In this document: positions 24,091-43,726 of the stretch, piece by piece
Layout: every line of letters starts with the position of its first letter
Numbering within the stretch: position 1 is the stretch's first letter
DNA from: Afipia sp. 64-13
GTDB lineage: Bacteria > Pseudomonadota > Alphaproteobacteria > Rhizobiales > Xanthobacteraceae
Direction of reading: 5' to 3'
DNA: 64,000 bases
NCBI GenBank assembly: GCA_001897755.1
Contig: MKUJ01000009.1
Span: 145,378-209,377, forward strand
Notes under the pieces: generated by a model
Told to the model about the DNA's origin: nothing
What the model saw: only the letters and a program-made list of their open reading frames with translations
Databases searched by the model: none
Program-made: the position numbers and the translations under genes

Positions 24091-24110
24091 TCATACTAAC
24101 TTTAGAATGA
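24091..24110. promoter_or_regulatory. Candidate shared operator, transporter operon
   Basis: TCATACTA-ACTT-TAGAATGA (7 of 8 arm pairs), 8+4+8 layout, about 100 bp upstream of the start at 23987. Confidence 0.6.
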
Positions 24111-24123
24111 TAGAATATCATTC
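24105..24123. promoter_or_regulatory. Second, overlapping perfect dyad at the transporter promoter
   Basis: GAATGATA-GAA-TATCATTC, 8-bp perfect arms. Confidence 0.5.
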
Positions 24124-24145
24124 GTAAAGCGAAAAGATGCCGGGC

Positions 24146-25522
24146 TCAGCAATTCGGCACGTTCACTGCCAGCCCGCCGCGTGATGTCTCCTTGTATTTT
24201 GCCTGCATGTCCGCGCCGGTTTCCATCATTGTCTTGATCACCTGATCGAGGGTGACATGGTGCGAGCCATCGCCGCTTTGCGCAAGGGATGTCGCGTTGA
24301 TGGCCTTCACCGCGCCGAACGCATTGCGCTCGATACAGGGAATTTGCACAAGCCCGCCAACGGGATCGCATGTCATCCCGAGATGGTGTTCCATGCCTAT
24401 TTCCGCGGCATTCTCGATCTGCCGGCTGGAGCCGCCGAGCGCGGCGGTCAACCCCGCCGCCGCCATCGAACAGGCCACCCCCACCTCGCCCTGGCAGCCG
24501 ACCTCGGCGCCGGAGATCGATCCGTTCATCTTGAACAGCATGCCGATCGCGGCCGCCGTCAGCAGGAAGGTCCGCAAGCCCTCATGCGAAGCGCCGGGGC
24601 AATGATCGCGATAATAACGCAGCACCGCGGGGATCACCCCGGCGGCGCCATTGGTCGGCGCCGTCACCACGCGGCCGCCGGCCGCATTCTCCTCATTCAC
24701 GGCGATGGCGAACAGGCTGACGAGGTCCATCGCCTCGATCGACCATCCGGTGTTGCGCTGGCGCGCCGCCTCATACCTCGCCTTCAGCGCGCGGGCCCGC
24801 CGCTTCACCTTCAGCCCGCCGGGCAGTTCGCCCTCGGCGTGCAGGCCGCGCTCGATACACTCGAACATCACGTCCACGATGGCGTCGAGCCGCGCCAGCA
24901 CGCTGTCGCGGTTCGCCCGCGCGCTTTCATTGGCGAGCACGAGCTCGGCGATTGACAGGCCGGTGCGATCCGACAGCGCGATCAGTTCCGCCGCGCTGCC
25001 AAAGGGAAACGGCACCGCGACACCGGATGTCTGCGTTGCGGGATCATCGCCTTCCCGATGGATGAAACCGCCGCCCAGCGAGTACCAGGTTTCCTCGCGC
25101 AGCGTGGCGCCCGCGGCGTCCAGCGCGATGAACCGCATGGTATTGGGGTGGGACGGCGGCACGGTGTCGAAATCGAACACGATGTCGCGCGCCGGATCGA
25201 AAGCGATGGTCTCGCCGCCCGGCAACTTCAGCTGGCGGGTTCGCGCGATGGTCGCCACGGCCTCATCCGCCTGATCGGGATCGAGCGTGTCCGGCAATCG
25301 TCCCGACAGGCCGAGAACGATCGCCTTGTCGGTGGCGTGGCCCCGGCCGGTCCAGGCCAGCGAGCCGAGCAGGATGGCGCGCAGATCTTTGATCCGGCCG
25401 CGCGCCTCCTCATCGAGTCCCGCCACGAACGCCGCGGCGGCCTTCATCGGCGCGGTCGTGTGCGACGACGAAGGGCCGATGCCGACTTTGAAAACGTCAA
25501 AAACGCTGATCATCGCCGGCAC
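24146..25522 (-). CDS. sdaA: L-serine ammonia-lyase (iron-sulfur-dependent, single chain)
   Basis: ISVFDVFKVGIGPSSSHTTAPMKAA...APTNGAAGVIPAVLRYY...MNGSISGAEVGCQGEVGVACSMAAAGL...MTCDPVGGLVQIPCIERNA. Confidence 0.96.
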   Translation of the reverse strand: MPAMISVFDVFKVGIGPSSSHTTAPMKAAAAFVAGLDEEARGRIKDLRAILLGSLAWTGRGHATDKAIVLGLSGRLPDTLDPDQADEAVATIARTRQLKLPGGETIAFDPARDIVFDFDTVPPSHPNTMRFIALDAAGATLREETWYSLGGGFIHREGDDPATQTSGVAVPFPFGSAAELIALSDRTGLSIAELVLANESARANRDSVLARLDAIVDVMFECIERGLHAEGELPGGLKVKRRARALKARYEAARQRNTGWSIEAMDLVSLFAIAVNEENAAGGRVVTAPTNGAAGVIPAVLRYYRDHCPGASHEGLRTFLLTAAAIGMLFKMNGSISGAEVGCQGEVGVACSMAAAGLTAALGGSSRQIENAAEIGMEHHLGMTCDPVGGLVQIPCIERNAFGAVKAINATSLAQSGDGSHHVTLDQVIKTMMETGADMQAKYKETSRGGLAVNVPNC

Positions 25523-25538
25523 CGGAATGAATGTGCGG

Positions 25539-26504
25539 TTACTTCTTCTTGTAGGCCCTGAGCTGCGGAATGACTTCCTTCGCGATCAGCTCGACCTGAT
25601 CCATCTGATACTTGTAAGGCACGAAGATGATCTTCTGCACGCCCGCGTCGATATGCGCCTTGAGCTGTTCGACGCACTCGTCCACCGAGCCCATGACGGC
25701 TGCGTCGCGCGAGCAGTCGCTGTTCTCGGGGAAGTCCCATTCCTTGTTCAGCCAGTCGAGCATGTCGGCCTTCACCGCGTCCTTCGACTTGCCGATCATG
25801 ACCGGGAGCTGCGAGCCGTTCAACAGCTTGTCGGGATCCTTGCCGCCTTCCTTGGCGAAGTTGCGGATTTTCGTCCACGATTTCGTGAACGCCTCGGGGG
25901 TGTAGAAATAGGTCAGCCAGCCGTCGCCGACGGTGGCGGCGCGCTGCAGCACCTTGTCGACGTAGCCGCCGATCAGGATCGGAATGCCCGGCTTCTGCAC
26001 CGGCTTCGGATACATCACGGCAGCGGAAATGTTGTGCTGCATGTACTTGCCGTCAACCATGTGCTCCGACCAGAGCCGGTTGAGGATTTCCAGGTTCTCG
26101 TCCATCAGCTTGCCGCGCTTCTCGAACGGAATGCCCATGGCGTCGAATTCGCGCTTGTACCAGCCGGACGCCATGCCCATGACCAGGCGGCCGCCGGAAA
26201 GCTGGTCCATGCTCGAAAGCTGCTTGGCGAGCGCGACCGGGTTGCGCAGCGGCAGCACCAGAATGCCGGTGCCGAGCTTGATCCTGGACGTGCGCGCGGC
26301 GATCGCCGTCAGCGTGGTCAGCGAATCCAGGATCGGGAAGTTCGGATCGACGCCCAGCAGCATGTGGTCCCAGACCCACAACGAATCGTAGCCGAGTTCC
26401 TCGACGCGCACGCCGTAGTCCACCAATCCCTTCGGATCCGGCATGTTCGGATAGGCGACGAAATTGCGCGCGGCGATGCCGAACGTGTTCGAGAGCATTG
26501 TCAT
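25539..26504 (-). CDS. LLM-class (bacterial luciferase-like) F420-dependent-type oxidoreductase
   Basis: DSLWVWDHMLLG...RIKLGTGILVLPLRNPVALAKQLSSMDQLSGGRLVMGMASGWYKREFDAMGIPFEKRGKLMDENLEILNRLW...IPILIGGYVDKVLQRAATVGDGWLTYF. Use of F420 rather than FMN is inferred from the adjacent operon. Confidence 0.88.
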   Translation of the reverse strand: MTMLSNTFGIAARNFVAYPNMPDPKGLVDYGVRVEELGYDSLWVWDHMLLGVDPNFPILDSLTTLTAIAARTSRIKLGTGILVLPLRNPVALAKQLSSMDQLSGGRLVMGMASGWYKREFDAMGIPFEKRGKLMDENLEILNRLWSEHMVDGKYMQHNISAAVMYPKPVQKPGIPILIGGYVDKVLQRAATVGDGWLTYFYTPEAFTKSWTKIRNFAKEGGKDPDKLLNGSQLPVMIGKSKDAVKADMLDWLNKEWDFPENSDCSRDAAVMGSVDECVEQLKAHIDAGVQKIIFVPYKYQMDQVELIAKEVIPQLRAYKKK

Positions 26505-26522
26505 TTTTGTTCTCCCCTAGAA

Positions 26523-27293
26523 TTACGCAATGAAAAGACGATCAGGGTCGAGCATCCTGAGCGTGGTCAGTTCCTGGATGGATGGCGGCTCGGTGACGCT
26601 GACGTCGTCGTCGAACGCAACATCGAAGCCGGTGTTGTCCTGCAGCTCTTCCCGCGTCACGCCGGGATTGAGCGCCAGCACCTTCATCTCGCGGCTCTTG
26701 TCGTCGAACGAGAACACCGCAAGCTCGGTGATGACGCGGAACATGCCGCCTTCCGGCAGCCCGCTCTCGGCGCGACTGTTGCCGCCGCGAATGAAGCCGG
26801 GACTGGTGATGAAATCGACCTTCTCGACGAAGCGCCGCTTCTCGTGCTTCATCGCCACGATCATGTTAGTGAGGCTGGAGATGTCGTTGCCGCCGCCGGT
26901 GCCCGGCAGACGGGTCTTGGGCTTGGCCGGATCGCCGATATAGGACGAATTCAAATTGCCGTAGCGATCGATCTGCGCGCCGCCCATGAAGCCGACATCG
27001 ACATAACCGCGCTGCAACAGCAGCAGCACGTCGGCGCTGCCCAGCACCATGTTGGCGCGCTTGGTGCAGCGCTGGTCGTTGGTGGACGGCGGCAACTTGC
27101 CCGGCTCGACGAAGGCGCCGACCACGCCGCCCTCGAACAGGATGGTGAGGCCGGGACAATGCAGGCGCTGCGCCAGCGTGGCGGCCAGCAGCGGCGTCCC
27201 GATGCCGGCGAACACGATCTGCCCATCCTTGAGCAGGCGTGCGCTCAAGACCGTGATGATCTCGGATGCGGTGTAGGTGGGTGCTTCAGTCAT
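26523..27293 (-). CDS. CoA-transferase family, beta subunit (GctB/IpdB-like)
   Basis: LKDGQIVFAGIGTPLLAATLAQRLHCPGLTILFEGGVVGAF...YVDVGFMGGAQIDRYGNLNSSYIGD...LPGTGGGNDISSL. Preferred start MTEAPTYTAS at 27293. Confidence 0.85.
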   Translation of the reverse strand: MTEAPTYTASEIITVLSARLLKDGQIVFAGIGTPLLAATLAQRLHCPGLTILFEGGVVGAFVEPGKLPPSTNDQRCTKRANMVLGSADVLLLLQRGYVDVGFMGGAQIDRYGNLNSSYIGDPAKPKTRLPGTGGGNDISSLTNMIVAMKHEKRRFVEKVDFITSPGFIRGGNSRAESGLPEGGMFRVITELAVFSFDDKSREMKVLALNPGVTREELQDNTGFDVAFDDDVSVTEPPSIQELTTLRMLDPDRLFIA

Positions 27294-28251
27294 CGAAAAT
27301 GCTCCGGCCACGACGGCTTGCGGTCACGATCTCATCGACGCCGATCATCGACAGGAATTCGTTCCACGACTTCGGCCCGTAGACGTAGTCGTCGAGATAC
27401 TTCTTCATGCCGCCGACCGGGTCGCCGTTGACCTGCGCGACATACTTTTCCATGTGCTGCATCATCGGCTCGTAGACGCCAAAGCACTCGTGCGGCGCGG
27501 AGCCGTAAGGCACTTCGACCACCGCATCGACGCAGAAGAACGGGATCTTGGTGTGGTCGGGCGCGCGGCGGATCTGGTCGTTGGAAACGATCCGCTCGGT
27601 GGTCAGGATCACGCGGTTGGCGGCCATCGCCAGGTCGATGTCCATGAACTGCAAGCCGTCCATCTGCGCGTTGCCATAGGCATCGCAGCGCTGGACATGG
27701 ATCAGCGCGACATCGGGATTGAGCGCCGGCACCAGCAGCAGCTTCTCGCCGGTGAACGGGCAATCGAATTCCTTGGCCTCGGGCCGCTGCGTGGCGACAT
27801 TCGAGCCCAGCATCGAGCGGATCGGAAGAAACGGCACGCCCATGCCGCCGGCACGGTAACGCATGCCCATCGCCATGTGGCTCCATTCGTCGTAGCGGCA
27901 GGCGCCGCTTTCGACGTGATGGCGCATCACCTTGGACAGTCCCCAGAGGATGCCCTGCGCGAACCAGCTCGTCTCGATGTGGTTCGCCGCGCCCGAGCCG
28001 AACAGCAGATCGCCATCGGTCGAGATGATGCAGCGCGAGCAGGACAGGTCCTTCTTGCGGGCACGGATCAACTGCCAGATCATCGCCATCGGCGTGCGCG
28101 ACATGGTCGAGCCGCCGATACCGACCGACATGCCGTCGCTGACGAACGATGCCGCCTGCTCCAGCGTCACCACTTTTTCGCGCAGACTGCGATCGCGGCG
28201 TGCCAGCCGACTGCGCAGTTCCTTGTATGGTTGGACCTTCCCGGGCTCCAC
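27286..28251 (-). CDS. CoA-transferase family, alpha subunit (GctA/IpdA-like)
   Basis: VVTLEQAASFVSDGMSVGIGGSTMSRTPMAMIWQLIRARKKDL...NPDVALIHVQRCDAYGNAQMDGLQFMDIDLAMAANRVILTTERIV. Confidence 0.87.
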   Translation of the reverse strand: MEPGKVQPYKELRSRLARRDRSLREKVVTLEQAASFVSDGMSVGIGGSTMSRTPMAMIWQLIRARKKDLSCSRCIISTDGDLLFGSGAANHIETSWFAQGILWGLSKVMRHHVESGACRYDEWSHMAMGMRYRAGGMGVPFLPIRSMLGSNVATQRPEAKEFDCPFTGEKLLLVPALNPDVALIHVQRCDAYGNAQMDGLQFMDIDLAMAANRVILTTERIVSNDQIRRAPDHTKIPFFCVDAVVEVPYGSAPHECFGVYEPMMQHMEKYVAQVNGDPVGGMKKYLDDYVYGPKSWNEFLSMIGVDEIVTASRRGRSIFDD

Positions 28252-28283
28252 GTTGCTTCCCTCGTTTTTCGTTCGAATTTGCG

Positions 28284-29765
<1,482 letters not shown>

Positions 29766-29786: not shown

Positions 29787-29806
29787 AGATACTATCATTA
29801 GTATCT
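29787..29806. promoter_or_regulatory. Candidate shared operator, PLP/CoA-transferase/LLM/sdaA operon
   Basis: AGATACTA-TCAT-TAGTATCT, perfect 8-bp arms, about 20 bp upstream of the GTG start at 29765. Confidence 0.75.
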
Positions 29807-29849: not shown

Positions 29850-32261
29850 CTAGTGGCAGGGCGCCGCCTGGGCCGGCGCCTGCCACGCGCCCGAGGCCGC
29901 GGCGAACGCGCGATCCCGCAGGGCGGCCGCTGCAGTGCCGTAAAGCGTGGTGCGCTGGCGCGGCACGCGGCCGGCGGCATAGATGATCGCCTCCATCGCC
30001 TGCGGCGTCATCTCCTGCCCGTGCGAAGCGCCGGCCGAGCGCGAGATGGTCTCATCCATCAAAGTACCGCCGAGATCGTTGACGCCGGCCGACAGGCAGC
30101 GCCGCACGCCTTCGGCGCCGAGCTTGACCCAGGACGCCTGGATGTTCGGGATGTGCGGATGCAGCACCAGCCGCGCCACCGCATGCATCAGAATCACTTC
30201 GCGGAAGGTCGGCCCGCGCCGCGCGCGCCCCTTGAGATAGATCGGCGCTTCCATGTGCACGAAGGGCAGCGGCACGAATTCGGTGAAGCCGCCGGTCTCG
30301 ATCTGCAGATCGCGGATGCGGATCAGATGCCGCGCCCAGTGCTCGTAGCGCTCGATGTGTCCGAACATGATGGTCGAGGTCGAGCGAAAGCCGAGCCGAT
30401 GCGCGGTGCGCATCACGTCCAGCCATTCGTCGGTGCGGATCTTGTCGTGGCACAGCGTGTCGCGCACCTCGTCGTCGAGAATTTCCGCCGCCGTGCCCGG
30501 CAAGGTGCCGAGCCCGGCCTCCTTGAGCCGCGACAGGAATTCGCCGACCGGCACGCCGAGCGTCTGCGCGCCCTGATGGATTTCGAGCGGCGAGAACGCA
30601 TGCACATGCATCTGCGGCACCGCCGCCTTCACCGCGCGGCAGATCTCCAGATATTTCTCGCCGGTGTAGGACGGATGGATGCCGCCCTGCATGCAGACCT
30701 CGGATCCTCCGCGTGCCCACGCCTCGCTCACCCGCCGCGTGATCTCGTCCATGGCGAGATCGTAGGGCTTGCCGCGCAGGTTCTCGCTCATCTTGCCTTT
30801 CGAGAAGGCGCAGAACTGGCACTTGAACGAACAGATGTTGGTGTAGTTGATGTTGCGGGTGACGACATAGCTCACGGTGTCGCCGTTCATCTGGCGGCGC
30901 AGATCGTCCGCTGCGCGGCAGATCGCGGCGAAATCGTCGCCGCGCGCGCGGAACAACTCCACGATCTCGCTTTCGCCGAGCGCGATACCGCGCTCCACTT
31001 TCGCCAGCGCCGGCGCGATGCGCGAGGACGCCACGACCTGCGGCGCCTTGTCGAGCAGAGCGGCCTCACGCGCCGGCAAAGCCGTCACGCTGCCCGGACA
31101 CCAGTCGTCGATGCGCGGCGCGCCTTCGCCGTCGACCAGATCGTACACCGCCTTGCGCAGACCCTGATCGATCCAGCGCACGGGATATTGCGCGTAGGAC
31201 GGATAGATCGCGAGACGTTCGGTCAGGGTCTTGCCGGCGGCGCGGGTCGCGGCGTCCAGCACGCGCAGATGCGGCCACGGCGCTTCGGGATTGACGTGAT
31301 CGGGCGTCACCGGAGAGACGCCGCCCCAGTCGTTGATGCCGGCGGCGACCAGACGGCCGAGCGCGCCGGGGCTGAGATTGGGCGGCGCCTGAATGTTCAT
31401 CGCCGGTTCGAAGATCAGCCGCGCGACGGCGATAGTCCACAGATGATCGTCAAGGTCGGGCGCGGCGGCATCCGCCATCCGCGTGCCGGGCTTGGGCCGG
31501 AAGTTCTGCACGATCACCTCCTGAAGGTGACCGTAGAGATCGTTGAGATCGCGCAGCGCCAGCAGCGAGTCGATGCGCTCCTCGCGCGTCTCGCCGATGC
31601 CGATCAGAATGCCGGAGGTGAACGGCACCGCATATTCGCCGGCAAGACGAATGGTCTCGATCCGCGCCGCGGGCTGTTTGTCGGGCGAGCCGTGATGCGC
31701 CGCGCCCTTCTGCATCAAGCGCTCGGACACGCTCTCCAGCATGATGCCCTGCGACACCGAGACCCGGCGCAGCGCGGCGATATCCTCGCCGCTCATCAGG
31801 CCGGGATTGATATGCGGCAGCAGTCCGGTACGCCGGAACACTTCGCGCGCGGCTTCGGCGAGATAGGACAGCGTGGTGGGATGGCCGAGCGCCTCAAGCT
31901 CCTCGCGCGCGACGCGGTAGCGCAGTTCGGGCTTGTCGCCGAGCGTAAACAGCGCCTCCTTGCAGCCGGCCGCCTTGCCCGCCTCGGCGATCGCGACCAT
32001 CTCGTCGATCGACAGGAACGCCTTCTCGCCGGCGCGCGGCGGATGGGCGAAGGTGCAGTAGTGGCAGACGTCGCGGCAAAGCTGCGTCAGCGGAATGAAC
32101 ACCTTGCGCGAATAGGAGACCTGATCGCCATGAGCGAGATCGCGCCGCGCGGCGGCGGCCTGCATCAGGGTCGCGAGATCGGCGTCGATCAGCGCCAGCG
32201 CTTCGTGGCGGGTCAGACGGCGGTCCGGCGAGAAATCCGGCAACATCGATGAAGCGGTCAT
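29850..32261 (-). CDS. fbiC: FO synthase, fused CofH-CofG (FbiC); coenzyme F420 biosynthesis
   Basis: 803 aa with two radical-SAM CX3CX2C motifs (CRDVCHYC, CSFKCQFC) and FbiC-like flanks (VSYSRKVFIPLTQLCRDVCHYCTFAHPP; CMQGGIHPSYTGEKYLEICRAVK). Confidence 0.96.
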   Translation of the reverse strand: MTASSMLPDFSPDRRLTRHEALALIDADLATLMQAAAARRDLAHGDQVSYSRKVFIPLTQLCRDVCHYCTFAHPPRAGEKAFLSIDEMVAIAEAGKAAGCKEALFTLGDKPELRYRVAREELEALGHPTTLSYLAEAAREVFRRTGLLPHINPGLMSGEDIAALRRVSVSQGIMLESVSERLMQKGAAHHGSPDKQPAARIETIRLAGEYAVPFTSGILIGIGETREERIDSLLALRDLNDLYGHLQEVIVQNFRPKPGTRMADAAAPDLDDHLWTIAVARLIFEPAMNIQAPPNLSPGALGRLVAAGINDWGGVSPVTPDHVNPEAPWPHLRVLDAATRAAGKTLTERLAIYPSYAQYPVRWIDQGLRKAVYDLVDGEGAPRIDDWCPGSVTALPAREAALLDKAPQVVASSRIAPALAKVERGIALGESEIVELFRARGDDFAAICRAADDLRRQMNGDTVSYVVTRNINYTNICSFKCQFCAFSKGKMSENLRGKPYDLAMDEITRRVSEAWARGGSEVCMQGGIHPSYTGEKYLEICRAVKAAVPQMHVHAFSPLEIHQGAQTLGVPVGEFLSRLKEAGLGTLPGTAAEILDDEVRDTLCHDKIRTDEWLDVMRTAHRLGFRSTSTIMFGHIERYEHWARHLIRIRDLQIETGGFTEFVPLPFVHMEAPIYLKGRARRGPTFREVILMHAVARLVLHPHIPNIQASWVKLGAEGVRRCLSAGVNDLGGTLMDETISRSAGASHGQEMTPQAMEAIIYAAGRVPRQRTTLYGTAAAALRDRAFAAASGAWQAPAQAAPCH

Positions 32262-32962
32262 ATCGCCCCTCCCTGGCTTTGCAGGACGGGCTGTCCCAAT
32301 CGTGCGTTGATATTGAGTTCGTCAAGCAAGGCCGACGTCCGCGATCCGAACCGTCGCGGCGCGGACACCAGATCGTCGGGCCGGTCCACATCGTGGCCGA
32401 GACCCTCGAGATGACACACCGCAGGAGCGATGCCGGCGCGGCGCGCGGCCGCCCGATGCGCGTGAAAGCTGCCATCGCCGAAGCATGGCGCGATCGCGAA
32501 CGGATCGGTCATCGCAAGACAATTGGTGCCGCCATCGCGCAAGGCCGGCACCAGCACCATCGGCTGGCCGACCATTACGCGAAGCACGCTCTGCACGTCC
32601 GCCACTGTGGCGAACGGCACGTCGCCGGGCACGACCATCGCGCCGGCATCACTGTCGCGGGCGACCGCGTGAAGGCCTTCGCGCACCGCGTCGTTGACGC
32701 CGGTCTCGGCGATGTCGGTGACCAGCCGCGCGCCGAACGGCCGCGCCACGCGCGCGACCGACGGATCGCCGCTGACCACGACGATGCCGGCCAGTTCATC
32801 GACGGCGCTGAGCACGCTCATCACGTCATGCAGCATCGCCTGCGCAAGCTGCGCCCGTTCGGCGCGTGTCAGCACCGAGGCGAGCCGCATCTTGGCGCGG
32901 CTGAAACGCTTGGCCGGCACCACGGCCCAGACCTGATCTTCGCTGTCGCGCGGCAAGGTCAT
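32258..32962 (-). CDS. cofC: 2-phospho-L-lactate/PEP/3-PG guanylyltransferase (CofC/FbiD family)
   Basis: WAVVPAKRFSRAKMRLASVLTRAERAQLAQAMLHDVMSVLSAVDELAGIVVVSGD; 4-nt overlap with neighbouring F420 genes. Confidence 0.92.
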   Translation of the reverse strand: MTLPRDSEDQVWAVVPAKRFSRAKMRLASVLTRAERAQLAQAMLHDVMSVLSAVDELAGIVVVSGDPSVARVARPFGARLVTDIAETGVNDAVREGLHAVARDSDAGAMVVPGDVPFATVADVQSVLRVMVGQPMVLVPALRDGGTNCLAMTDPFAIAPCFGDGSFHAHRAAARRAGIAPAVCHLEGLGHDVDRPDDLVSAPRRFGSRTSALLDELNINARLGQPVLQSQGGAI

Positions 32963-34718: not shown

Positions 34719-34734
34719 GTATCCACGACGCAGG

Positions 34735-35385
34735 TTACGGCAGGCCGGTGATCCGGATGCCGGCACCGGGCACCTTGTACTTGCGATTGATGCCGATGAG
34801 AATAGAGGTCAGCGCCTCGGCCGCCGCCGAATTCGCCAGCACGCCGCCATCGACGCCGCGCGTCGCGACCACATCGGCAAGCCCGATCACCAGTTCGCGC
34901 GCCTCCTTGTCATTGCTGAACACCAGCACGTCGCAATCGGCGCGGTCGCCGGCATGCAGCTTGCTCGCGCCGACATTGTGGAACGCGGAGACCACGCGCA
35001 CGCCCTCGCCGAGCAGCTGCTGCGCGATCTGCGCCGCCGAACCTTCCGGCGGCAACTGCACGGTGGAAACCTTCGGCGGCACCAGCGGCACCGCGGCATC
35101 GACCACGATCTTGCCCTGCGCCGCATCCTTGATCTCGAGCAGCGAGGCTTCGTGGTTCGAAAACGGAACGGCGAGCACGATCACGTCGGCCGCCTTGGCG
35201 GCGTCGGCATTGCTCTGGCCCGAGGCGCTGCCGCCGAGTTCGGATGCGAACGCCTGCGCCTTTTCGGCGGAGCGCGAGCCGATCACCACCTGATAGCCCG
35301 CGGCAAGCCAGCGCTTCGCCAGTCCGGAGCCGAGGTCGCCGGTGCCGCCCAGGATCGCGATGATCGGTTTCGATGTCTCAGCCAT
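34735..35385 (-). CDS. npdG: NADPH-dependent F420 reductase-like protein
   Basis: IAILGGTGDLGSGLAKRWLAAGYQVVIGSRSAEKAQAFASEL...VIVLAVPFSNHEASLLEI...VVSAFHNVGASKLHAGDRADCDVLVFSNDKEAR. Confidence 0.88.
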   Translation of the reverse strand: MAETSKPIIAILGGTGDLGSGLAKRWLAAGYQVVIGSRSAEKAQAFASELGGSASGQSNADAAKAADVIVLAVPFSNHEASLLEIKDAAQGKIVVDAAVPLVPPKVSTVQLPPEGSAAQIAQQLLGEGVRVVSAFHNVGASKLHAGDRADCDVLVFSNDKEARELVIGLADVVATRGVDGGVLANSAAAEALTSILIGINRKYKVPGAGIRITGLP

Positions 35386-35421
35386 GCTCTTTCTGCTTCC
35401 CGTTCTATCAGTGGAGTATCA

Positions 35422-36189
35422 TCAGTCGAATGTCATGTCCGGCAGCGGCACCAGCCTGACGCCGGACAGATCCAGCGCCTCGCGCACATGCCTTGCCAGC
35501 GCGATCGCGGTCGGCTCGTCGCCATGGACGCAGAGCGTGTCGACCTTGCAGGGGATCGTCTTGCCGCTCCGCGAGGTGATGGTGCGGTGAACGACCATGT
35601 CGACCACCTGCTTCGCCGCCACTTCCGGATTCTTGATCACCGCGCCGGCCAGCTTGCGCGAGGTCAGATTGCCGTCGTCCTCGTAGAGACGATCGCAGAA
35701 ACCTTCGCGCGCGACCTTGAGACCGAGCGCGCGGCCGGCCTTCTCCATCTCCGAGCCCGCCAGCGCGACGTAGATGATGTCGCGATCCACCGTCTTGATG
35801 GCGCGGCCGATCGCCATGGCGTAATCGCTGTTCTCGGCGGCCATGTTGTTGAGCGCGCCGTGCGGCTTCAGATGCGTCACCTTGACGGCCGAATACGCCG
35901 CCAGCGCCTGCAGCGCGCCGATCTGATAGGCCACCATGTATTCGAGGTCGTCGGGCCGCATGTCGATGCGGCGGCGGCCGAAGCCCCACAGATCGTTGAA
36001 GCCCGGATGCGCGCCGACCGATACGCCCTCGCGCTTGGCGTCGGCGACCACCCTGCGCATGGTCAGGGGATCGCCGGCATGAAAGCCGCAGGCGATGCTG
36101 GCGGAATTGATGATCTTCAGGATGCTGGTGTCGTCGCCGATGTCATAGGCGCCGAAGCCTTCCGCCATATCCGCATTCAGATTGACCAT
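35422..36189 (-). CDS. pxpA: LamB/YcsF family protein (5-oxoprolinase subunit PxpA-like)
   Basis: VNLNADMAEGFGAYDIGDDTSILKIINSASIACGFHAGDPLTMRRVVADAKREGVSVGAHPGFNDLWGFGRR...HLKPHGALNNMA...VDTLCVHGD. Confidence 0.93.
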   Translation of the reverse strand: MVNLNADMAEGFGAYDIGDDTSILKIINSASIACGFHAGDPLTMRRVVADAKREGVSVGAHPGFNDLWGFGRRRIDMRPDDLEYMVAYQIGALQALAAYSAVKVTHLKPHGALNNMAAENSDYAMAIGRAIKTVDRDIIYVALAGSEMEKAGRALGLKVAREGFCDRLYEDDGNLTSRKLAGAVIKNPEVAAKQVVDMVVHRTITSRSGKTIPCKVDTLCVHGDEPTAIALARHVREALDLSGVRLVPLPDMTFD

Positions 36190-36259
36190 CATCGACATTC
36201 GGCCCTCATCGTCCTTTCAGGGGCGCCGCCGCAGCCCGTTTCCGGGCTCATTCGTCGCA

Positions 36260-36281
36260 AAGGTACTATCATTAGTACCTT
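36260..36281. promoter_or_regulatory. Candidate shared operator, pxpA-F420 operon
   Basis: AAGGTACTA-TCAT-TAGTACCTT, perfect 9-bp arms, about 70 bp upstream of the pxpA ATG. Confidence 0.78.
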
Positions 36282-36325: not shown

Positions 36326-37558
36326 TTAAGCCCGGCCGGTGATCTTGGCCCATAACATCTTGAAGCGCGAGATGATCACCGAAAACACCAGCGAGCCGGC
36401 ATCCAGTTCCGTGACCACCGGCGCCGCGCCGCTGCCGCCCGACGCCTGATGCGACAGCTTGGCTTCGAGGTTCTGCACGAAGGCGCCGATCAGCCGGCCG
36501 GCGACGTCCTCGACCAGTCCCGAACGGCTGAACTGCGCCAGCATGCCGGTCAGCGTGAAGCCGATATTGACGTCGACTCGCGTCTGGTCGGGATTGTCGC
36601 CCGGCTTGACGGCGTAGCCGATCAGGCCGCGGGTCGCCGAATTGCTGCGCTTGTCCTTGCCGGCGCCGTCGATGGTGCCGGTGCGGGTGGCCTCGTCGCG
36701 CGCCACATCGGCGACGCCCTGGAATTCGGCCGAGATCGGCCCGACCTTGACCTTGATCTGCCCCTCGACATGGCCGTCCACCGGATCGCCCGCGAGCGAG
36801 GCGCCGGGCAGACACGAAGCCACCTCGGGAATGTTGCCGAAGAAGTCCCACACCACATCGGCGGGATGCGAGACCGTGAAGCTCTGGGTGAAGTTGGTCT
36901 GCGGTTTCCAGTTGGCGTCCTTGCGCGGCGCGGCGGATGCCGCGGCGGCGGCTTCCTTCGCGGCGGCAGGCTTGTTCGTCGCGGCGGGTACCGCCGCACG
37001 CGCCGTCGCGGTGGCGGCGACCGGCACGGCATGACCCGAGCCGGACGGGCCGAGCGACGTGCGGTTGCCGTTCGGAACGGCGGCGATGCCACGGGCGCGG
37101 CGCGCTTCGATGACCCGCTGGATCGCGCGGGTGATGCCGACATAGCCGGTGCAGCGGCACAGATTGCCGCTCATCGCGACGCGGATGTCGTGCTCGGACG
37201 GCGCGTCCAGACGCAGCACCACGTCGCGCGCCGAGACGATCATGCCTGGCGTGCAATAGCCGCATTGCAGCCCGTGCTCGGCGGAAAACGCCGCACGCAA
37301 TTCGCGCGCGATCTCGTCATCGTCGAGCCCCTCGATCGTGGTCACCTCGGCCTGCTGGCAGGCGACTGCGAAGGTGATGCAGGAGCGCGTCGGCACGCCA
37401 TCCACCAAAAGCGTGCAGGCGCCGCAGACGCCGTGCTCGCAGCCGATATGGGTGCCGGTGAGATTCTGCGTCTCGCGCAGGAAGTCGGCGAGATGGGTCC
37501 GCGGCTGGATGTCGGCACTGACCGGCTTGCCGTTGACGATGAGATTGACCGTGCTCAT
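36326..37558 (-). CDS. Molybdenum hydroxylase [2Fe-2S] subunit fused to a CoxG/SRPBCC domain
   Basis: N-terminal GCEHGVCGACTLLVDG and CGYCTPGMIVSA...GNLCRCTGYVGI; Ala-rich linker; C-terminal FTQSFTVSHPADVVWDFFGNIPEVASCLPGASL (CoxG-like). Confidence 0.93.
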   Translation of the reverse strand: MSTVNLIVNGKPVSADIQPRTHLADFLRETQNLTGTHIGCEHGVCGACTLLVDGVPTRSCITFAVACQQAEVTTIEGLDDDEIARELRAAFSAEHGLQCGYCTPGMIVSARDVVLRLDAPSEHDIRVAMSGNLCRCTGYVGITRAIQRVIEARRARGIAAVPNGNRTSLGPSGSGHAVPVAATATARAAVPAATNKPAAAKEAAAAASAAPRKDANWKPQTNFTQSFTVSHPADVVWDFFGNIPEVASCLPGASLAGDPVDGHVEGQIKVKVGPISAEFQGVADVARDEATRTGTIDGAGKDKRSNSATRGLIGYAVKPGDNPDQTRVDVNIGFTLTGMLAQFSRSGLVEDVAGRLIGAFVQNLEAKLSHQASGGSGAAPVVTELDAGSLVFSVIISRFKMLWAKITGRA

Positions 37559-38394
37559 GCTGACTGCGCTTGTTCGAGGGCCCGCCGCAACGCGGTGATG
37601 TGAGTCTGTCTGTCGATCGGGTCGGTCATGCCGGAGGCCTTGATCACCTCGTCGACGGCCTTGCTGTCGAACGCGGCGTCCATCCGCTCCGCGCGGCCGT
37701 CGCCGATAATGTTGCCGGCCTCGGCGACGACGATCGGCCGCGTCTCGGTGGCGCCGATCACCACGCGGCTGACACCGCGCTCCGGATCGGCCAGGAACGC
37801 GCCGATGGCATGGGCGAACTCGCCGGTCTTGCGGCAGGTTTTATAGTAACCCCAGCGCGCCGCGCCGCTCAGCTTCGGCACGCGCACCGCCACCAGCATC
37901 TCGCCGGGCTGCAGATCGGCCTCGAGCGCGCCGAGCATATAATCCTCGACCGGGATGACCCGTTCGCCGCCCGGTCCGCGCAGCACCACCTTGGCGCCGA
38001 CCGCCGCCATGATCGAATGCCAGTCGGCGGACGGATCGGCATGGGTGAGACTGCCGCCGATGGTGCCGCGATTGCGCACCGCGCGATAGGCGATGCCCTT
38101 CGCTACCGCGGGCAACGCGCCGCGCGTCACATCGGGCACGCGGCGATCCTCGATATCGGCGTGGGTGATGCACGCGCCGAGCACGATCTCCTCGCCGCGA
38201 TCCTCGAAACGGCGCAGCTCCTCGATGCCGGTGATATCGACCAGCAGGTCCGGCTGCACCAGACGCATGTTCAGCATCGGGCCGAGCGACTGGCTGCCCG
38301 CCATGATCTTCACCATCAGGCTGTCGTCGGCGATCAGCTTGATGGCCGCGGCAACGTCGCCCGGACGGGCGTAATCGAAATTGACCGGTTTCAC
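37555..38394 (-). CDS. Molybdenum hydroxylase FAD-binding subunit (CoxM-like)
   Basis: MKPVNFDYARPGDVAAAIKLIADDSLMVKIMAGSQSLGPMLNMRLVQPDLLVDI...AYRAVRNRGTIGGSLTHADPSADW. Confidence 0.95.
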   Translation of the reverse strand: MKPVNFDYARPGDVAAAIKLIADDSLMVKIMAGSQSLGPMLNMRLVQPDLLVDITGIEELRRFEDRGEEIVLGACITHADIEDRRVPDVTRGALPAVAKGIAYRAVRNRGTIGGSLTHADPSADWHSIMAAVGAKVVLRGPGGERVIPVEDYMLGALEADLQPGEMLVAVRVPKLSGAARWGYYKTCRKTGEFAHAIGAFLADPERGVSRVVIGATETRPIVVAEAGNIIGDGRAERMDAAFDSKAVDEVIKASGMTDPIDRQTHITALRRALEQAQSA

Positions 38395-40754
38395 GCCGAC
38401 ACTCCCTCGGCGGCCTGCGCACGCTTGTTGTTTTTCGCTTCCTCGATGGCTTCGAGCACCCGGCGCGGCGTCATCGGCGAATGCAGCAGTTCGACGCCGA
38501 ACGACTTGAGCGCATCGTTCACCGCGTTGCCGATCGCGCCGGGCGGTGCGATCGCCCCGCCCTCGCCGAGCCCCTTGACGCCGAACTGCGTGTAGGGCGC
38601 CAGCGTCTCCATATGGCCGAGCCGCGGCGCCGGCACTTCGGTCGGGCCGGGCAACAAATAATCGGCGAAGGTCGATGCCAGCGGCTGGCCGGAGGCGTCG
38701 AAATTCATTTCCTCATAGAGCGCGGTGCCGATGCCCTGCGCGAGACCGCCATAGATCTGGCCATCCACCACCATCGGATTGATCAGCTTGCCGCCGTCCT
38801 CGACGATGACGTAGTCGAGAATCTCGATGTCGCCCATCTCCGGATCGACGGCGACGACGGCGACATGCGTCGCGTAGCTGAACGTCCCGGAATCGCGCAC
38901 CGGCTTGTAGCCGATCGTCACTTCGAGGCCGCGCGGATCGACCGACGGCGGCAGGTCCTGCGGGCGCCGATACCAGGTGTGCGCGATCTCCTGCAGCGTC
39001 ACGCTGCTGGAGGGACCGACCACCGCACCATCCACAAGCTCGACATGCGCGACATCGGTCTGCAGCAGATGCGCGCCGATCGCCTTGGCGAGCCGGGCGA
39101 TCTCCTGCGACGCCGTCGCCACCGCGCCGCCCGCCATCACCGCGCAGCGCGAGCCCCAGCTTCCGGTGGAATACGGCGTGTATTCGGTGTCGCCATGCAC
39201 CAGCTTGATCCTGGCGACATCGATGCCGAGAATCTCGTGCGCGACCTGCGGCAGCGTGGTCTCCATGCCCTGGCCATGGGAATGAACGCCGACCCGCAGT
39301 TCCAGCCCGCCGTCCGGCGTCATCCGCGCCGTCGCCTGCTCATGGCCCGGCACCATCGGAATGCCCCAGCCGGCATAGACCGAGGTGCCGTGCGCGCCCT
39401 GCTCGCAATAGACGGAAAGACCGACACCGATCAGCCGCCCGTCCGGCTCCGGATTCTTCTGCCGCTCGCGGAGCGCCGGCAGATCGATCTTCGCCAGCGC
39501 CTGACGCAGCGATTCCGGATAGTCGCCGCTGTCGAAATGCTTGCGGGTGATATTGTCGAACGGCATCTGCTCGGGACGCACCAGATTGCGCAGGCGCACC
39601 TCGTAAGGCTCGAGCCCGGTCTCGCGCGCGATGGCGTCCATCATCAGTTCGATGGCGTAGCACACGCCGGTGCGGGCGACGCCGCGATAGGGCAGAATCG
39701 GACATTTGTTGGTCGCAACCGACCAGGTCCGACAGCGATAGGACGGAAAGTCGTAAGGGCCCGGCAGAATACTCGCGACCTGCGCGGCTTCGAGGCAGGC
39801 GGAGAACGGATAGGACGAATACGCGCCGGAATCGACCGTCGCCTCGCATTCGACCCCGCGCAGCTTGCCGTCGCGGTCGGCATAGACCGTGATCTTGTAG
39901 TGATGCTCGCGGCAATTGGCGCCCGCGGTCAGATGCTCGCGGCGATCCTCCAGCCAGCGCACCGGATGGCCGCGATGCATCGCGAGCCAGCCGAGGCAGA
40001 CATCCTCGGTGAGCAGAATGCCCTTGTAGCCGAAGCCGCCGCCGACATCCGGCGAGACGATCCGCACCTGGACCTGTTCGAGCCCGAGGCATTCGGCGAG
40101 GCCGTTGCGCACGATATGCGGCAACTGGCTGCCGGTGTGGAGCACGAGCTGCTCCATGCGGTTGTGCCACACCGCGACCGTGCCCCGCCCTTCCATCGGC
40201 GCCATGCATTGCCGGGCCGTGGAGATTTCGCGGCTGATCTTGATCGGGGCGTCGTAGGCCGCCTCCATGTTGACGTCGACGAACGTCTCCAGAAAGACGT
40301 TGTCGCCCCAGTGCTCGTGCAACAACGCCGAGCCGGGCTGCCTTGCCAGCAGCATGTCGTGAACCGCCGGCAGTTCCTCGAAATCGACCTCGACCGCGGC
40401 GGCGATGTCCTCGGCCTCCGCCCTGGTGTCGGCCACACACATCGCGATCAGTTCGCCGACCTGACGCACCTTGTCGGAGGCGAGGATCGGCTGATCTGAG
40501 GCCTTGAAGCCCGTTAGCCCCGACACCGCGCGGATCGGCTTGACGTCCTTGAGATCGGCGGCGACGAAAACGGAATCCCTGTATTGCGGCGGAATGCGGA
40601 TGGCGCGAATACGCGCATGCGCGAGCGGGCTGCGGACGAAGGCGACATCGCGCATGCCGGGCAAGCGAATGTCGCCGACAAACTCGCCACGCCCGCGCAG
40701 AAGACGGTCGTCCTCCTTGCGCAGAAGACTTACGCCGATGCCCTGGCCCGCCAT
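38391..40754 (-). CDS. Molybdenum hydroxylase large (Mo-pterin) subunit, xanthine dehydrogenase/aldehyde oxidase family
   Basis: 787 aa; GVSLLRKEDDRLLRGRGEFVGDI...VVSPDVGGGFGYKG...PYRGVARTGVCYAIELMMD...GSWGSRCAVMAGGA...GVKGLGEGGAIAPPGAIGNAVNDAL. Confidence 0.95.
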   Translation of the reverse strand: MAGQGIGVSLLRKEDDRLLRGRGEFVGDIRLPGMRDVAFVRSPLAHARIRAIRIPPQYRDSVFVAADLKDVKPIRAVSGLTGFKASDQPILASDKVRQVGELIAMCVADTRAEAEDIAAAVEVDFEELPAVHDMLLARQPGSALLHEHWGDNVFLETFVDVNMEAAYDAPIKISREISTARQCMAPMEGRGTVAVWHNRMEQLVLHTGSQLPHIVRNGLAECLGLEQVQVRIVSPDVGGGFGYKGILLTEDVCLGWLAMHRGHPVRWLEDRREHLTAGANCREHHYKITVYADRDGKLRGVECEATVDSGAYSSYPFSACLEAAQVASILPGPYDFPSYRCRTWSVATNKCPILPYRGVARTGVCYAIELMMDAIARETGLEPYEVRLRNLVRPEQMPFDNITRKHFDSGDYPESLRQALAKIDLPALRERQKNPEPDGRLIGVGLSVYCEQGAHGTSVYAGWGIPMVPGHEQATARMTPDGGLELRVGVHSHGQGMETTLPQVAHEILGIDVARIKLVHGDTEYTPYSTGSWGSRCAVMAGGAVATASQEIARLAKAIGAHLLQTDVAHVELVDGAVVGPSSSVTLQEIAHTWYRRPQDLPPSVDPRGLEVTIGYKPVRDSGTFSYATHVAVVAVDPEMGDIEILDYVIVEDGGKLINPMVVDGQIYGGLAQGIGTALYEEMNFDASGQPLASTFADYLLPGPTEVPAPRLGHMETLAPYTQFGVKGLGEGGAIAPPGAIGNAVNDALKSFGVELLHSPMTPRRVLEAIEEAKNNKRAQAAEGVSA

Positions 40755-40787: not shown

Positions 40788-40807
40788 TCATCCTATTTTT
40801 AGGATGA
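40788..40807. promoter_or_regulatory. Candidate shared operator (variant), Mo-hydroxylase operon
   Basis: TCATCCTA-TTTT-TAGGATGA, perfect 8-bp arms, 33 bp upstream of the large-subunit ATG. Confidence 0.65.
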
Positions 40808-40866: not shown

Positions 40867-40888
40867 TCCGAAGCCTTAAGTCCGAACC

Positions 40889-41707
40889 TCAATGCGCCTT
40901 GCGGGACTTGCGTCCCATGAGCTTCACGGGAGCAGACTCACCATCGGCCCGCTTCTTGCGATCGGCCTTGGCGCCCAACAGATCGATCCGCAACTTGATG
41001 CAGTCGCTCCGATAGATGATGTCGGCAACGTAGATCGCAATGTCCCTGTCGTCGGTCACGATGCAGCGGCACTGCATGGTCGGCGATCCGAGCGGGATTT
41101 TCATCAGATCGGCGATCTCGGGATCGGCGCTGCCGACCACCAGGGTCTCATGCGCTTCGCCGAGCAGGATGTCGTCCATCGCATCGATGGTCGGCAACGC
41201 CGCGGCGACCATGAACCGCTTGGCGTTCTTGTCGAAAATATAGCGCGCCAGATGCAGATGCACCACCGAATAGGGCTCGTCGTTGCGATACTGCACGCTG
41301 CACAGCCGGACATATTCGGGTGCGAGCTGGCCGTCGCCATCTTCGAGCTGCGGCGGCGGACAGTTCTTCTCCACCGTGATGGTCTCGGGGACGTTATCTT
41401 CCAGCGACGCCACGAGGCTGCTCCAGCTCGTCGCAAGCTGCAGCCAGTGGCGGTCCTGGGTGTGTTTCGACACGAAGGTCCCGCGCCCCTGACGGACGTC
41501 GAGCAGCCCCTCCTCGTTCAGCACTTCGACCGCCTGACGCACGGTGACGCGCGCCACCTCGAACTCGCGTTCCAGCTCCTCGAGGGTGGAGATCTTCTGC
41601 CCCGGACTCCATTGTCCCGACTGAATCCGGTGCCGCATGATCGAGGCAACCTGGATGTAAAGCGGAACCCTGCTCCTGTCGTATGATTTGAGAAGTTTGG
41701 AGGCCAT
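40889..41707 (-). CDS. GntR family regulator with UTRA-like effector domain (HutC subfamily)
   Basis: SRVPLYIQVASIMRHRIQSGQWSPGQKISTLEELEREFEVARVTVRQAVEVLNEEGLLDVRQGRGTFVSKH; start MASKLLKSYDR at 41707. Confidence 0.92.
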   Translation of the reverse strand: MASKLLKSYDRSRVPLYIQVASIMRHRIQSGQWSPGQKISTLEELEREFEVARVTVRQAVEVLNEEGLLDVRQGRGTFVSKHTQDRHWLQLATSWSSLVASLEDNVPETITVEKNCPPPQLEDGDGQLAPEYVRLCSVQYRNDEPYSVVHLHLARYIFDKNAKRFMVAAALPTIDAMDDILLGEAHETLVVGSADPEIADLMKIPLGSPTMQCRCIVTDDRDIAIYVADIIYRSDCIKLRIDLLGAKADRKKRADGESAPVKLMGRKSRKAH

Positions 41708-41869
41708 GAAAAATATCTTCAAGTGAATGCGAATGACACCGGCGGCAACCTGAAGCGAACCAACCGTCATGATTGATCCGGGCGGCCGCGGCAGTCGATC
41801 AGGCCGTTCATACAACGAAAGGCCGCGATGACGAAGGAAAAATCAGATCCGGCTCGCTTTATGAACCGA

Positions 41870-42284: not shown

Positions 42285-42779
42285 TTACGAGACGCGCGGA
42301 AGGGAGCGCAGCAGCGTAACGAGATGATGATCGGGAAACTCGCTGCCCAAAATTTGCGCATAGGTTTTAAGACCGAATGTCGCGGCGGCGTCCGCAGCCT
42401 CCGGCGCACCGAGATCGCCGAGCGCGGATTGCATCGTGATGTGCTGCAGCCGCTCGGCCTCCAGCTCCTGCGCCTTGATGCGCTGGCGAAGTTGCTCGAC
42501 ATCGGCGGCAGGCCACGCCGTATCCGGAGTCTTGAGAAAGCGGCGCACGCCGCGCAGCGGCCGGACAACGTTCTCTTGCCAAGCCGCGATCAAATCGATC
42601 ACACTGGTTATATCGTCGGCACTCAAGCGCCGCCCGCAATGCGCTCGCCAGAGCAGATAGAGCACCAGATTGACGTCCATCCCCAGCCGATCCTGCAGAT
42701 CGAGACAAGTCTCGGCGACCGATGGCGCGGCGTAAAATGACAGCGAAAAATGCCAGAACGACGTTGCGGGGGTTTGCAT
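42285..42779 (-). CDS. TIGR02444-like conserved hypothetical protein
   Basis: FWHFSLSFYAAPSVAETCLDLQDRLGMDVNLVLYLLWRA... Confidence 0.65.
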   Translation of the reverse strand: MQTPATSFWHFSLSFYAAPSVAETCLDLQDRLGMDVNLVLYLLWRAHCGRRLSADDITSVIDLIAAWQENVVRPLRGVRRFLKTPDTAWPAADVEQLRQRIKAQELEAERLQHITMQSALGDLGAPEAADAAATFGLKTYAQILGSEFPDHHLVTLLRSLPRVS

Positions 42780-42958
42780 ATGGCGGCTTTCGGCTCACAG
42801 GCGGCGGCGACAGGTTATTTTGCGGACATCCCGGCACACAACATGATTTTTCCGGGCGCGGATTGACAGACACCATGGCCGCGATACGGCACACTGTCTT
42901 TCCGCAGGGCCTCGTCCCGTTCGAGCCTCGCACTCCAAGATAAGACCGCGGTACCGCC

Positions 42959-43672
42959 ATGACGTACAGACAGGTTCAGCCTAGCGCCCCTTCCGAAAAC
43001 CTGACGGATCGCATCACCGCGATGCTGCGGCAGGACATCATCGGCGGCAAATACGAGCCGGGCATGCAGCTTCCGGCCGGCAAGGATCTCAGCCAGTCCT
43101 TCGGCGTCAGCATCACCGTGGTCCGGGAGGCGCTGTCGCGGCTGAAATCCGACGGGCTGATCGCCTCGCGCCAGGGCAAGGGCGTGTTCGTCGAGAACGA
43201 TGCCAAGGCGCGGCCGTTCCGCCTTGCGCCGGCGGGCTCGCCGAACGCCCTGTCTCATATCTTCGAACTGCGCATGGGCGTCGAGGTGCAGGCAGCCGGA
43301 CTCGCCGCCATGCGGCGCACGTCGCGCGACCTGAAGCAAATGCAGAAACATCTCAAGCAGATGGAGCCATCCAAGAATAGCTTCGAGCAGGCGCTGACCT
43401 CCGACCTCGCCTTCCATCGCTCGATCGCCGAGGCAACGCAAAATCCGCTGATTGTCTCCTTCGTCGAGTTCCTGCAGCCGCATCTGAAGGAATCGATCGC
43501 CACCGCGCGCGCCAATTCGGCCAGAAAGCCGGCCACCCAGGCGACGGTCTACAAGGATCATTGCGATATCTACGAGGCGATCGCCGCCTGCGACGAGCGA
43601 CAGGCGCGCATCGCCGCGCGACGCGTGCTGGAACGAAGCGTACGCCGCCTCCGTGCGACACCGGAGCGCTGA
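42959..43672 (+). CDS. GntR family regulator with FCD domain (FadR subfamily)
   Basis: ENLTDRITAMLRQDIIGGKYEPGMQLPAGKDLSQSFGVSITVVREALSRLKSDGLIASRQGKGVFVEND and FCD-like HRSIAEATQNPLIVSF. Confidence 0.93.
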   Translation: MTYRQVQPSAPSENLTDRITAMLRQDIIGGKYEPGMQLPAGKDLSQSFGVSITVVREALSRLKSDGLIASRQGKGVFVENDAKARPFRLAPAGSPNALSHIFELRMGVEVQAAGLAAMRRTSRDLKQMQKHLKQMEPSKNSFEQALTSDLAFHRSIAEATQNPLIVSFVEFLQPHLKESIATARANSARKPATQATVYKDHCDIYEAIAACDERQARIAARRVLERSVRRLRATPER

Positions 43673-43702
43673 GCGATTCCCCACGAAATTATCGTCATCG
43701 TG

Positions 43703-43726
43703 ATACTATCATTCCTATTATAGTAT
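43703..43726. promoter_or_regulatory. Candidate shared operator (divergent spacing), M20 hydrolase promoter
   Basis: GATACTATCATT at 43702-43713 is identical to part of the 29787-29806 element; ATACTAT-N10-ATAGTAT dyad, about 80 bp upstream of the ATG at 43805. Confidence 0.55.

What the first reader, a model, noticed from the sequence alone, without database searches (positions are those of the whole stretch)
24091..43726. A shared palindromic operator ties five transcription units into a putative F420-linked catabolic regulon
Seen directly: AGATACTA-TCAT-TAGTATCT (29787-29806), AAGGTACTA-TCAT-TAGTACCTT (36260-36281), TCATCCTA-TTTT-TAGGATGA (40788-40807), TCATACTA-ACTT-TAGAATGA (24091-24110) and GATACTATCATT with ATACTAT-N10-ATAGTAT (43702-43726). 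The first four share an 8(-9)+4+8 dyad layout with CTA-N4-TAG at the centre. All five lie in intergenic DNA roughly 20-105 bp upstream of, respectively, the PLP/CoA-transferase/LLM/sdaA operon, the pxpA-F420 operon, the Mo-hydroxylase operon, the Liv-type transporter operon and the M20 hydrolase. These AT-rich dyads stand out in GC-rich DNA. Inference: one regulator co-controls cofactor synthesis, uptake and catabolism of one compound.
Basis: partly seen in the sequence, partly recalled or inferred. Interest (0 to 1): 0.93.

Follow-up and report, generated by a model that had tools for sequence, protein, structure and literature searches.

The report
Operator-linked inducible F420 catabolic regulon
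One 20-base DNA switch site sits in front of five neighbouring gene groups, and its conservation across dozens of related soil bacteria indicates that one regulator turns on uptake, breakdown of a nitrogen-ring compound, and manufacture of the rare cofactor F420 needed to break it down.

Summary
Four sites fit WSRTNCTA-N4-TAGNAYSW exactly (0.02 expected in the window); the genome has no convincing copy elsewhere. Site 5 is real, but its register is 43709-43728. A matrix built from only the four window sites, scanned over 1.10 Mb of 64 related loci, puts 75 of its top 80 hits upstream of the corresponding operon heads (6% of that sequence). In Sinorhizobium meliloti pSymA its top seven hits lie in front of the operons of the same cluster. 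Only spacer 4 works, and letters, not just pairing, are conserved, so this is a protein operator, not an RNA hairpin.

The two GntR candidates are not equal. The UTRA/HutC-type protein (40889-41815) is the only regulator seen to recur with the cluster, and in several relatives it carries the site itself. The FCD-type protein is confined to a close clade with M20. Most likely mechanism: a ligand-released repressor over promoter elements that co-induces uptake, a molybdenum hydroxylase, an F420-dependent reductase, downstream enzymes, F420 synthesis and F420 reduction (plus transhydrogenase in relatives).

Inferred, not shown: binding, direction of control, substrate. The operator does not have canonical HutC geometry.

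The parts
24091..24110 (.). operator 1, TCATACTAACTTTAGAATGA, 103 bp upstream of the transporter SBP start codon (23987)
   Evidence: orthologous site at the same place in L020, L022, L066, L128, L131 and S. meliloti pSymA
29787..29806 (.). operator 2, AGATACTATCATTAGTATCT, 21 bp upstream of the PLP-enzyme start codon; its half-site is the -10 of a TCGACA-17-TAGTAT promoter-like site
   Evidence: conserved at PALP/CoAA in most relatives
36261..36280 (.). operator 3, AGGTACTATCATTAGTACCT, 62 bp upstream of pxpA, head of the F420 operon
   Evidence: conserved at pxpA or fno in relatives
40788..40807 (.). operator 4, TCATCCTATTTTTAGGATGA, 33 bp upstream of the Mo-hydroxylase operon
   Evidence: conserved at MoCo in relatives
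43709..43728 (.). operator 5 in corrected register, TCATTCCTATTATAGTATGA, 76 bp upstream of the M20 start; overlaps promoter-like hexamers TATTAT/TATGAT
   Evidence: degenerate here (score 15.7), better match in L136 (21.4)
19333..24068 (-). Liv-type ABC transporter operon: SBP, LivH, LivM, LivG, LivF
   Evidence: Pfam; NCBIfam
24146..29765 (-). PLP enzyme (28284-29765), CoA-transferase A and B (27286-28251, 26523-27311), F420-dependent LLM oxidoreductase (25539-26504), L-serine ammonia-lyase (24146-25522)
29850..36198 (-). F420 operon: PxpA (35422-36198), NADPH:F420 reductase (34735-35385), CofE (33951-34766), CofD (32959-33954), CofC (32258-32962), CofGH (29850-32261)
   Evidence: NCBIfam equivalogs above cut-off for CofGH, CofC, CofD, CofE, npdG
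36326..40754 (-). molybdenum hydroxylase: large subunit (38391-40754), FAD subunit (37555-38394), FeS subunit with a fused CoxG domain (36326-37558)
   Evidence: closest solved large subunit is quinoline 2-oxidoreductase 1t3q
40889..41815 (-). GntR/UTRA (HutC-subfamily) regulator, likely start 41707; candidate repressor of the regulon
42959..43672 (+). GntR/FCD regulator next to M20; not conserved with the regulon
43805..45076 (+). M20 ArgE/DapE-type hydrolase; in many relatives it is inside the LLM operon

Best explanation
The five sites are operators of one dimeric transcription factor, most likely the UTRA-domain GntR (HutC-subfamily) protein encoded at 40889-41815. Without its ligand it sits over or just downstream of the promoters of five transcription units and represses them. 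The imported substrate or an early intermediate binds the UTRA domain and releases it, which co-induces (1) Liv-type uptake, (2) a quinoline-oxidoreductase-type molybdenum hydroxylase, (3) the CoA-transferase, F420-dependent LLM reductase, PLP enzyme and serine ammonia-lyase operon and the M20 hydrolase, and (4) a dedicated F420 supply: PxpA, NADPH:F420 reductase and CofE, CofD, CofC, CofGH. The pathway is probably a reductive route for an N-heteroaromatic compound: hydroxylation to a lactam, hydride transfer from F420H2, lactam opening (PxpA or PxpABC), M20 and CoA-ester steps. Shown: sites, their genome-wide confinement, conservation, spacer and letter specificity, co-occurrence with the LLM, F420 and HutC-type genes. 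Inferred: regulator identity, repression, ligand, reaction order.
For: Four exact sites where 0.02 are expected; confined to the cluster in the genome. The 4-site matrix puts 75 of its top 80 hits over 64 other loci into operon-head upstream windows, which are 6.1% of the sequence; scrambled palindromic matrices average 13.9; only spacer 4 gives many high scores, 113 against at most 21. Out-of-sample: the seven best hits in 42 kb of S. meliloti R28 pSymA lie upstream of CoAA (two), npdG, MoCo, pntAa, SBP and livH. Same-genus complete genomes have sites at the heads of these units. 113 distinct sites: T4, C6, T7 and A8 at 93% or more. HutC-type gene: 30 of 31 loci that have it have a site; close homologues in 14 of 18 LLM genomes against 2 of 102 others, Fisher 5e-13; near-invariant recognition helix VARVT[VI]RQA; its own gene has sites in several clades. 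LLM never found without CofGH in the family sample, 18/18 against 13/102, 2e-13; LLM passes the F420-dependent subfamily model TIGR03619. Transhydrogenase pntAB joins the regulon in relatives, which fits NADPH supply for Fno. Operator 2 overlies the -10 of a promoter-like site.
Against: Published HutC-subfamily motifs have GT-N4-AC (PMC4494728); here the nearest GT and AC are 12 bp apart in some sites and absent in others, so the geometry is not canonical. The window's own HutC-type gene has no convincing site. Four LLM genomes lack a detected HutC-type gene (G015 by a contig end at that very place; G001, G100 and G118 are fragmented). The F420 operons of Rhodoplanes relatives lack the site, so coupling of F420 synthesis is not universal. 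Counts are not phylogenetically independent, and the loci were collected by LLM similarity. No binding or expression data.
Confidence: 0.76

Rival explanations
1. The sites form one regulon, but the regulator is the FCD-type GntR (42959-43672) or both GntR proteins share it.
For: It lies next to operator 5, and the FCD-M20 pair is kept in two relatives.
Against: No FCD or FUSC homologue was found in the other loci that carry the motif; FCD-type sites are TKGT-N3-ACMA (PMC4494728), which the motif does not contain.
Confidence: 0.08
2. The regulon is real, but the regulator is another transcription factor encoded elsewhere in the genome.
For: Non-canonical operator for a HutC-subfamily protein; some loci have sites with no HutC-type gene within 10 kb.
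Against: ORF clustering over the loci found no other recurrent regulator family among the conserved clusters examined; strong genome-level co-occurrence of the HutC-type gene; sites in front of the HutC-type gene in several clades.
Confidence: 0.14
3. The dyads are RNA hairpins (leader structures or terminators) or REP-like repeats.
For: 8-4-8 dyads in intergenic DNA near gene starts.
Against: Across 113 distinct sites pairing at position 5/16 is 0.43 against 0.38 expected, while T4, C6, T7, A8 are near-invariant; the arms are AT-rich, which makes a weak hairpin; sites are not scattered over the genome.
Confidence: 0.02
4. Chance AT-rich palindromes in intergenic DNA.
For: AT-rich intergenic DNA favours such matches; site 5 alone is within the chance range.
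Against:: specificity for letters, spacer and operon heads far above scrambled controls.
Confidence: 0.005

Closest known systems
HutC-subfamily (GntR/UTRA) catabolic regulons such as NagR/YvoA and DasR
   Same: GntR winged helix plus UTRA domain; palindromic operators near promoters of uptake and catabolic operons; closest solved relatives are YvoA and DasR
   Different: Operator is WSRTNCTA-N4-TAGNAYSW, not GT-N4-AC; the regulon includes a redox-cofactor biosynthesis operon
F420-dependent picrate (2,4,6-trinitrophenol) degradation in Rhodococcus and Nocardioides
   Same: F420H2-dependent reductase of the luciferase-like superfamily used for catabolism (PMC8498797); an NADPH:F420 reductase belongs to that system (own knowledge)
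   Different: Actinobacterial; nitroaromatic ring; here proteobacterial, with Mo-hydroxylase, CoA-transferase and the whole F420 synthesis operon under the catabolic operator
Reductive catabolism of N-heterocycles (nicotinate via 6-oxo-tetrahydronicotinate; reductive pyrimidine route), from own knowledge
   Same: Mo-hydroxylase (nicotinate), ring reduction, then amide-ring hydrolysis and further amidohydrolase or CoA steps
   Different: Ring reduction here is assigned to an F420H2-dependent LLM enzyme and lactam opening to PxpA/PxpABC; substrate not known

Membership tests
Single-regulator regulon with a shared operator | Same motif upstream of several transcription units and rare elsewhere in the genome | tested here: met
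Single-regulator regulon with a shared operator | Motif conserved in front of orthologous units in other genomes | tested here: met
Single-regulator regulon with a shared operator | Regulator binds the motif and controls expression | not testable with these tools
   needs EMSA/footprinting and RNA-seq
GntR HutC subfamily (regulator 40889-41815) | GntR winged helix plus UTRA domain | tested here: met
   Pfam PF00392 and PF07702 above cut-off
GntR HutC subfamily (regulator 40889-41815) | Canonical operator GT-N4-AC (GTMTAKAC) | tested here: not met
   consensus against PMC4494728; exceptions such as FarR, NagQ and SdhR are listed in that paper, so this is typical of the subfamily rather than required
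HutC equivalog (histidine utilization repressor) | Score above the TIGR02018 cut-off | tested here: not met
   67.9 bits against 220
F420 biosynthesis operon | CofGH/FbiC, CofC, CofD and CofE equivalogs | tested here: met
F420-dependent LLM oxidoreductase | Above cut-off of an F420-dependent LLM subfamily model | tested here: met
   TIGR03619 206.6 against 166.9
F420-dependent LLM oxidoreductase | Genomic dependence on F420 synthesis genes | tested here: met
   18/18 LLM genomes have CofGH; 14 of 16 further genomes too
F420-dependent LLM oxidoreductase | Activity with F420H2 | not testable with these tools
   enzyme assay needed
5-oxoprolinase PxpABC | All three subunits PxpA, PxpB, PxpC | tested here: inconclusive
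   PxpA only in the window; PxpB and PxpC near the HutC-type gene or PxpA in about 14 relatives

The most novel reading that the evidence does not exclude
A HutC-type regulator with a non-canonical 20-bp operator controls an F420H2-dependent reductive catabolic pathway for an N-heterocycle in Proteobacteria, in which the cell builds the whole cofactor supply chain (F420 synthesis, F420 reductase, in relatives also transhydrogenase) only when the substrate is present. This would explain why F420 is found only in traces in some Alphaproteobacteria.
Probability: 0.55. Interest if true: 0.8.

Novelty: new variant of a known kind. Interest (0 to 1): 0.66.

Why it matters
The role of F420 outside Actinobacteria and Archaea is largely open; [quoted passage not shown] An F420 operon under a substrate-responsive catabolic operator gives a concrete, testable explanation and assigns F420 to one pathway. 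It also gives a candidate inducible system in tractable strains (Sinorhizobium meliloti pSymA) with which to find the substrate, and a non-canonical operator for a UTRA-type GntR protein.

Tried and rejected
RNA hairpin and chance explanations rejected. FCD GntR as master regulator judged unlikely. A short pattern (TACTANNNNTAGTA with one mismatch) over 120 genomes was too unspecific to separate genomes with and without the cluster. No site was found at the second F420 locus of the genome (L123, L127) or at the F420 operons of Rhodoplanes. Off-cluster matches near topA and in other coding DNA judged chance. Paper searches for an F420 catabolic regulon or an F420-linked pathway in Rhizobiales found nothing relevant in the held library. 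Substrate could not be fixed: solved relatives of the SBP are generic; pyrrole-2-carboxylate, pyridine carboxylates and pyrimidine-like rings were considered, without decisive evidence. The dihydroorotase gene beside the S. meliloti cluster passes the pyrC equivalog cut-off and is seen in only 3 loci, so it was not taken as a pathway gene.
Full report
OBSERVATION. Sites 1-4 match WSRTNCTA-N4-TAGNAYSW exactly; shuffles of the window give 0.02. The central CTA-N4-TAG occurs five times in the window, four of them these sites. In the 3.6 Mb genome the tighter form WSRTMCTA-N4-TAGKAYSW has three exact matches, all in this cluster, and of two one-mismatch matches one is site 1. Looser matches elsewhere that I inspected are in coding DNA or upstream of unrelated genes (topA and one other) with a broken half-site. 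Site 5 is better read at 43709-43728; it is degenerate here (score 15.7, within the range of chance hits), but the same place in front of M20 has the site in the 98% relative L135 and a better one, TCATTCTGATTATAGTATGA (21.4), in the 86% relative L136.

GENES. Domain searches give: Liv transporter (19333-24068); SdaA, F420-type LLM oxidoreductase, glutaconate-type CoA-transferase pair and a cysteine-synthase-like PLP enzyme (24146-29765); CofGH, CofC, CofD, CofE, NADPH:F420 reductase, PxpA (29850-36198); a molybdenum hydroxylase whose large subunit is closest, among solved structures, to quinoline 2-oxidoreductase, with a CoxG domain fused to the FeS subunit (36326-40754); a GntR/UTRA protein (40889-41815); a GntR/FCD protein, M20 hydrolase and FUSC exporter (42959-47410). 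The CoA-transferase B subunit keeps the glutamate that aligns with the residue known to me as catalytic in glutaconate CoA-transferase (alignment). N-terminal alignments move the starts of the PLP enzyme, M20 and SBP downstream, so every site lies 21-103 bp upstream of its start codon. Operator 2 contains the -10 of a TCGACA-17-TAGTAT promoter-like site, and two promoter-like matches overlap operator 5 (only 5 such matches in 19.9 kb against 2.7 expected, so this is suggestive only). Operators on the -10 suggest repression.

CONSERVATION. The LLM protein fetched 78 loci, about 64 of them orthologous clusters in Alpha- and Betaproteobacteria and a few others. Unbiased enumeration of perfect 8-4-8 dyads already showed the motif with other letters (TTGTTCTA..TAGAACAA, TCATACTA..TAGTATGA) upstream of PALP, Fno and MoCo. 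A clean test used a matrix from only the four window sites and left out the two closest relatives: of the best 80 hits in 1.10 Mb, 75 lie in windows upstream of PALP, CoAA, PxpA, Fno, MoCo/MoFAD, SBP, M20 or HutC, which make up 6.1% of the sequence. Palindromic matrices with permuted half-site columns average 13.9 of 80, and other spacers give at most 21 scores of 15 or more against 113 for spacer 4. The final 133 sites (113 distinct, 52 loci) have T4, C6, T7, A8 at 93-97%, whereas pairing at the variable position 5/16 is near expectation; two outer positions (2/19, 3/18) covary. This is the signature of a dimeric protein operator. 43 loci have sites at two or more operon heads and 25 at three or more. 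Same-genus genomes G065 and G107 carry sites at the heads of these units, weak at SBP and HutC in G107. In S. meliloti R28 pSymA, not part of the LLM locus set, the seven best hits of the four-site matrix in 42 kb are all intergenic, in front of CoAA (two), npdG, MoCo, pntAa, SBP and livH.

REGULATOR. FCD and FUSC have no homologue in the other loci; FCD is kept only with M20 in a close clade. The UTRA protein is found in 31 loci, 30 of which have a site; its recognition helix is nearly invariant, VARVT[VI]RQA. In 120 genomes of the family, close homologues (E below 1e-60) occur in 14 of 18 LLM genomes and 2 of 102 others. One of the two exceptions (G035) is a contig that holds the cluster and ends before the LLM, and in G015 the contig starts inside MoCo where the HutC-type gene would be expected. 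Sites occur in front of the HutC-type gene in several clades, and in G065 between it and divergent pxpBC. Against it stands the geometry: published HutC motifs have GT-N4-AC (PMC4494728), and this one does not, although that paper lists exceptions. I put the regulator assignment at about 0.75.

F420 LINK. The LLM passes the F420-dependent model TIGR03619. All 18 LLM genomes in the family sample have CofGH against 13 of 102 others; 14 of 16 genomes chosen mostly because F420 genes were not seen near their LLM also have it. In betaproteobacterial L114 and L115 the site precedes pxpA-fno-cofEDC-GH. In relatives the regulon includes the pntAB transhydrogenase, which would supply NADPH for the NADPH:F420 reductase. 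The genome has a second CofGH and a second CofD/CofE/Fno set without the operator, so the window operon looks like a dedicated inducible copy. [quoted passage not shown] In Rhodoplanes relatives the F420 operon has no site, so the coupling is not universal.

PATHWAY (inference). Recurrent parts are the Mo-hydroxylase, F420 LLM, CoA-transferase pair, M20, Liv transporter and often PxpA, with PxpBC in about 14 loci; the PLP enzyme and SdaA are variable, and Cupriavidus L064 adds a biotin-dependent carboxylase. The most economical reading is hydroxylation of an N-heteroaromatic ring to a lactam, hydride transfer from F420H2, ATP-dependent lactam opening by PxpA(BC), amide hydrolysis by M20 and CoA-ester degradation. 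The substrate is not determined.

LIMITS. Loci were collected by LLM similarity and are related to each other, so the P values are not those of independent events; the out-of-sample S. meliloti case and the letter and spacer specificity do not depend on them. No binding, expression or enzymatic data exist here.

Noticed in passing
G000:C1:1-8400 (L123): Second F420-linked cluster in the same genome: LLM oxidoreductase, FAA hydrolase, M20, CofGH (62% to the window's), HMGL-like protein and a divergent AraC regulator; no copy of the operator.
   Followed up: partly
G000:C21:4000-18000 (L127): A second set of Fno, CofE and CofD homologues near Mo-hydroxylase-type subunits, again without the operator.
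   Followed up: partly
L144 (S. meliloti R28 pSymA, CP130049.1 44-71 kb) and L145: The regulon with F420 synthesis genes sits on conjugative symbiotic megaplasmids of some S. meliloti and S. fredii strains (12 records).
   Followed up: partly
L038:12570-15644 and homologues in about 12 loci: pntAB transhydrogenase genes inside the cluster, with their own site TCTTACTATAAATAGGTTGA in several loci.
   Followed up: yes
L130, L133, L114, L115, L075: pxpB and pxpC are divergent from the HutC-type gene or from pxpA, with a site in the shared intergenic region in several loci; the window has pxpA alone.
   Followed up: partly
17504-19305: Diaminopropionate ammonia-lyase (above NCBIfam cut-off) divergent from an Lrp/AsnC regulator, next to the transporter; no operator there.
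   Followed up: no
36326-37558: Mo-hydroxylase FeS subunit carries a fused C-terminal CoxG domain.
   Followed up: no
L125 (G067): A close SBP homologue and a 47% HutC-type homologue with two motif-like sites, near Rieske oxygenase and amidase genes and without the LLM: possibly a variant regulon.
   Followed up: partly
L064:10970-14535: In Cupriavidus numazuensis the LLM is followed by a biotin-dependent acyl-CoA carboxylase pair.
   Followed up: no
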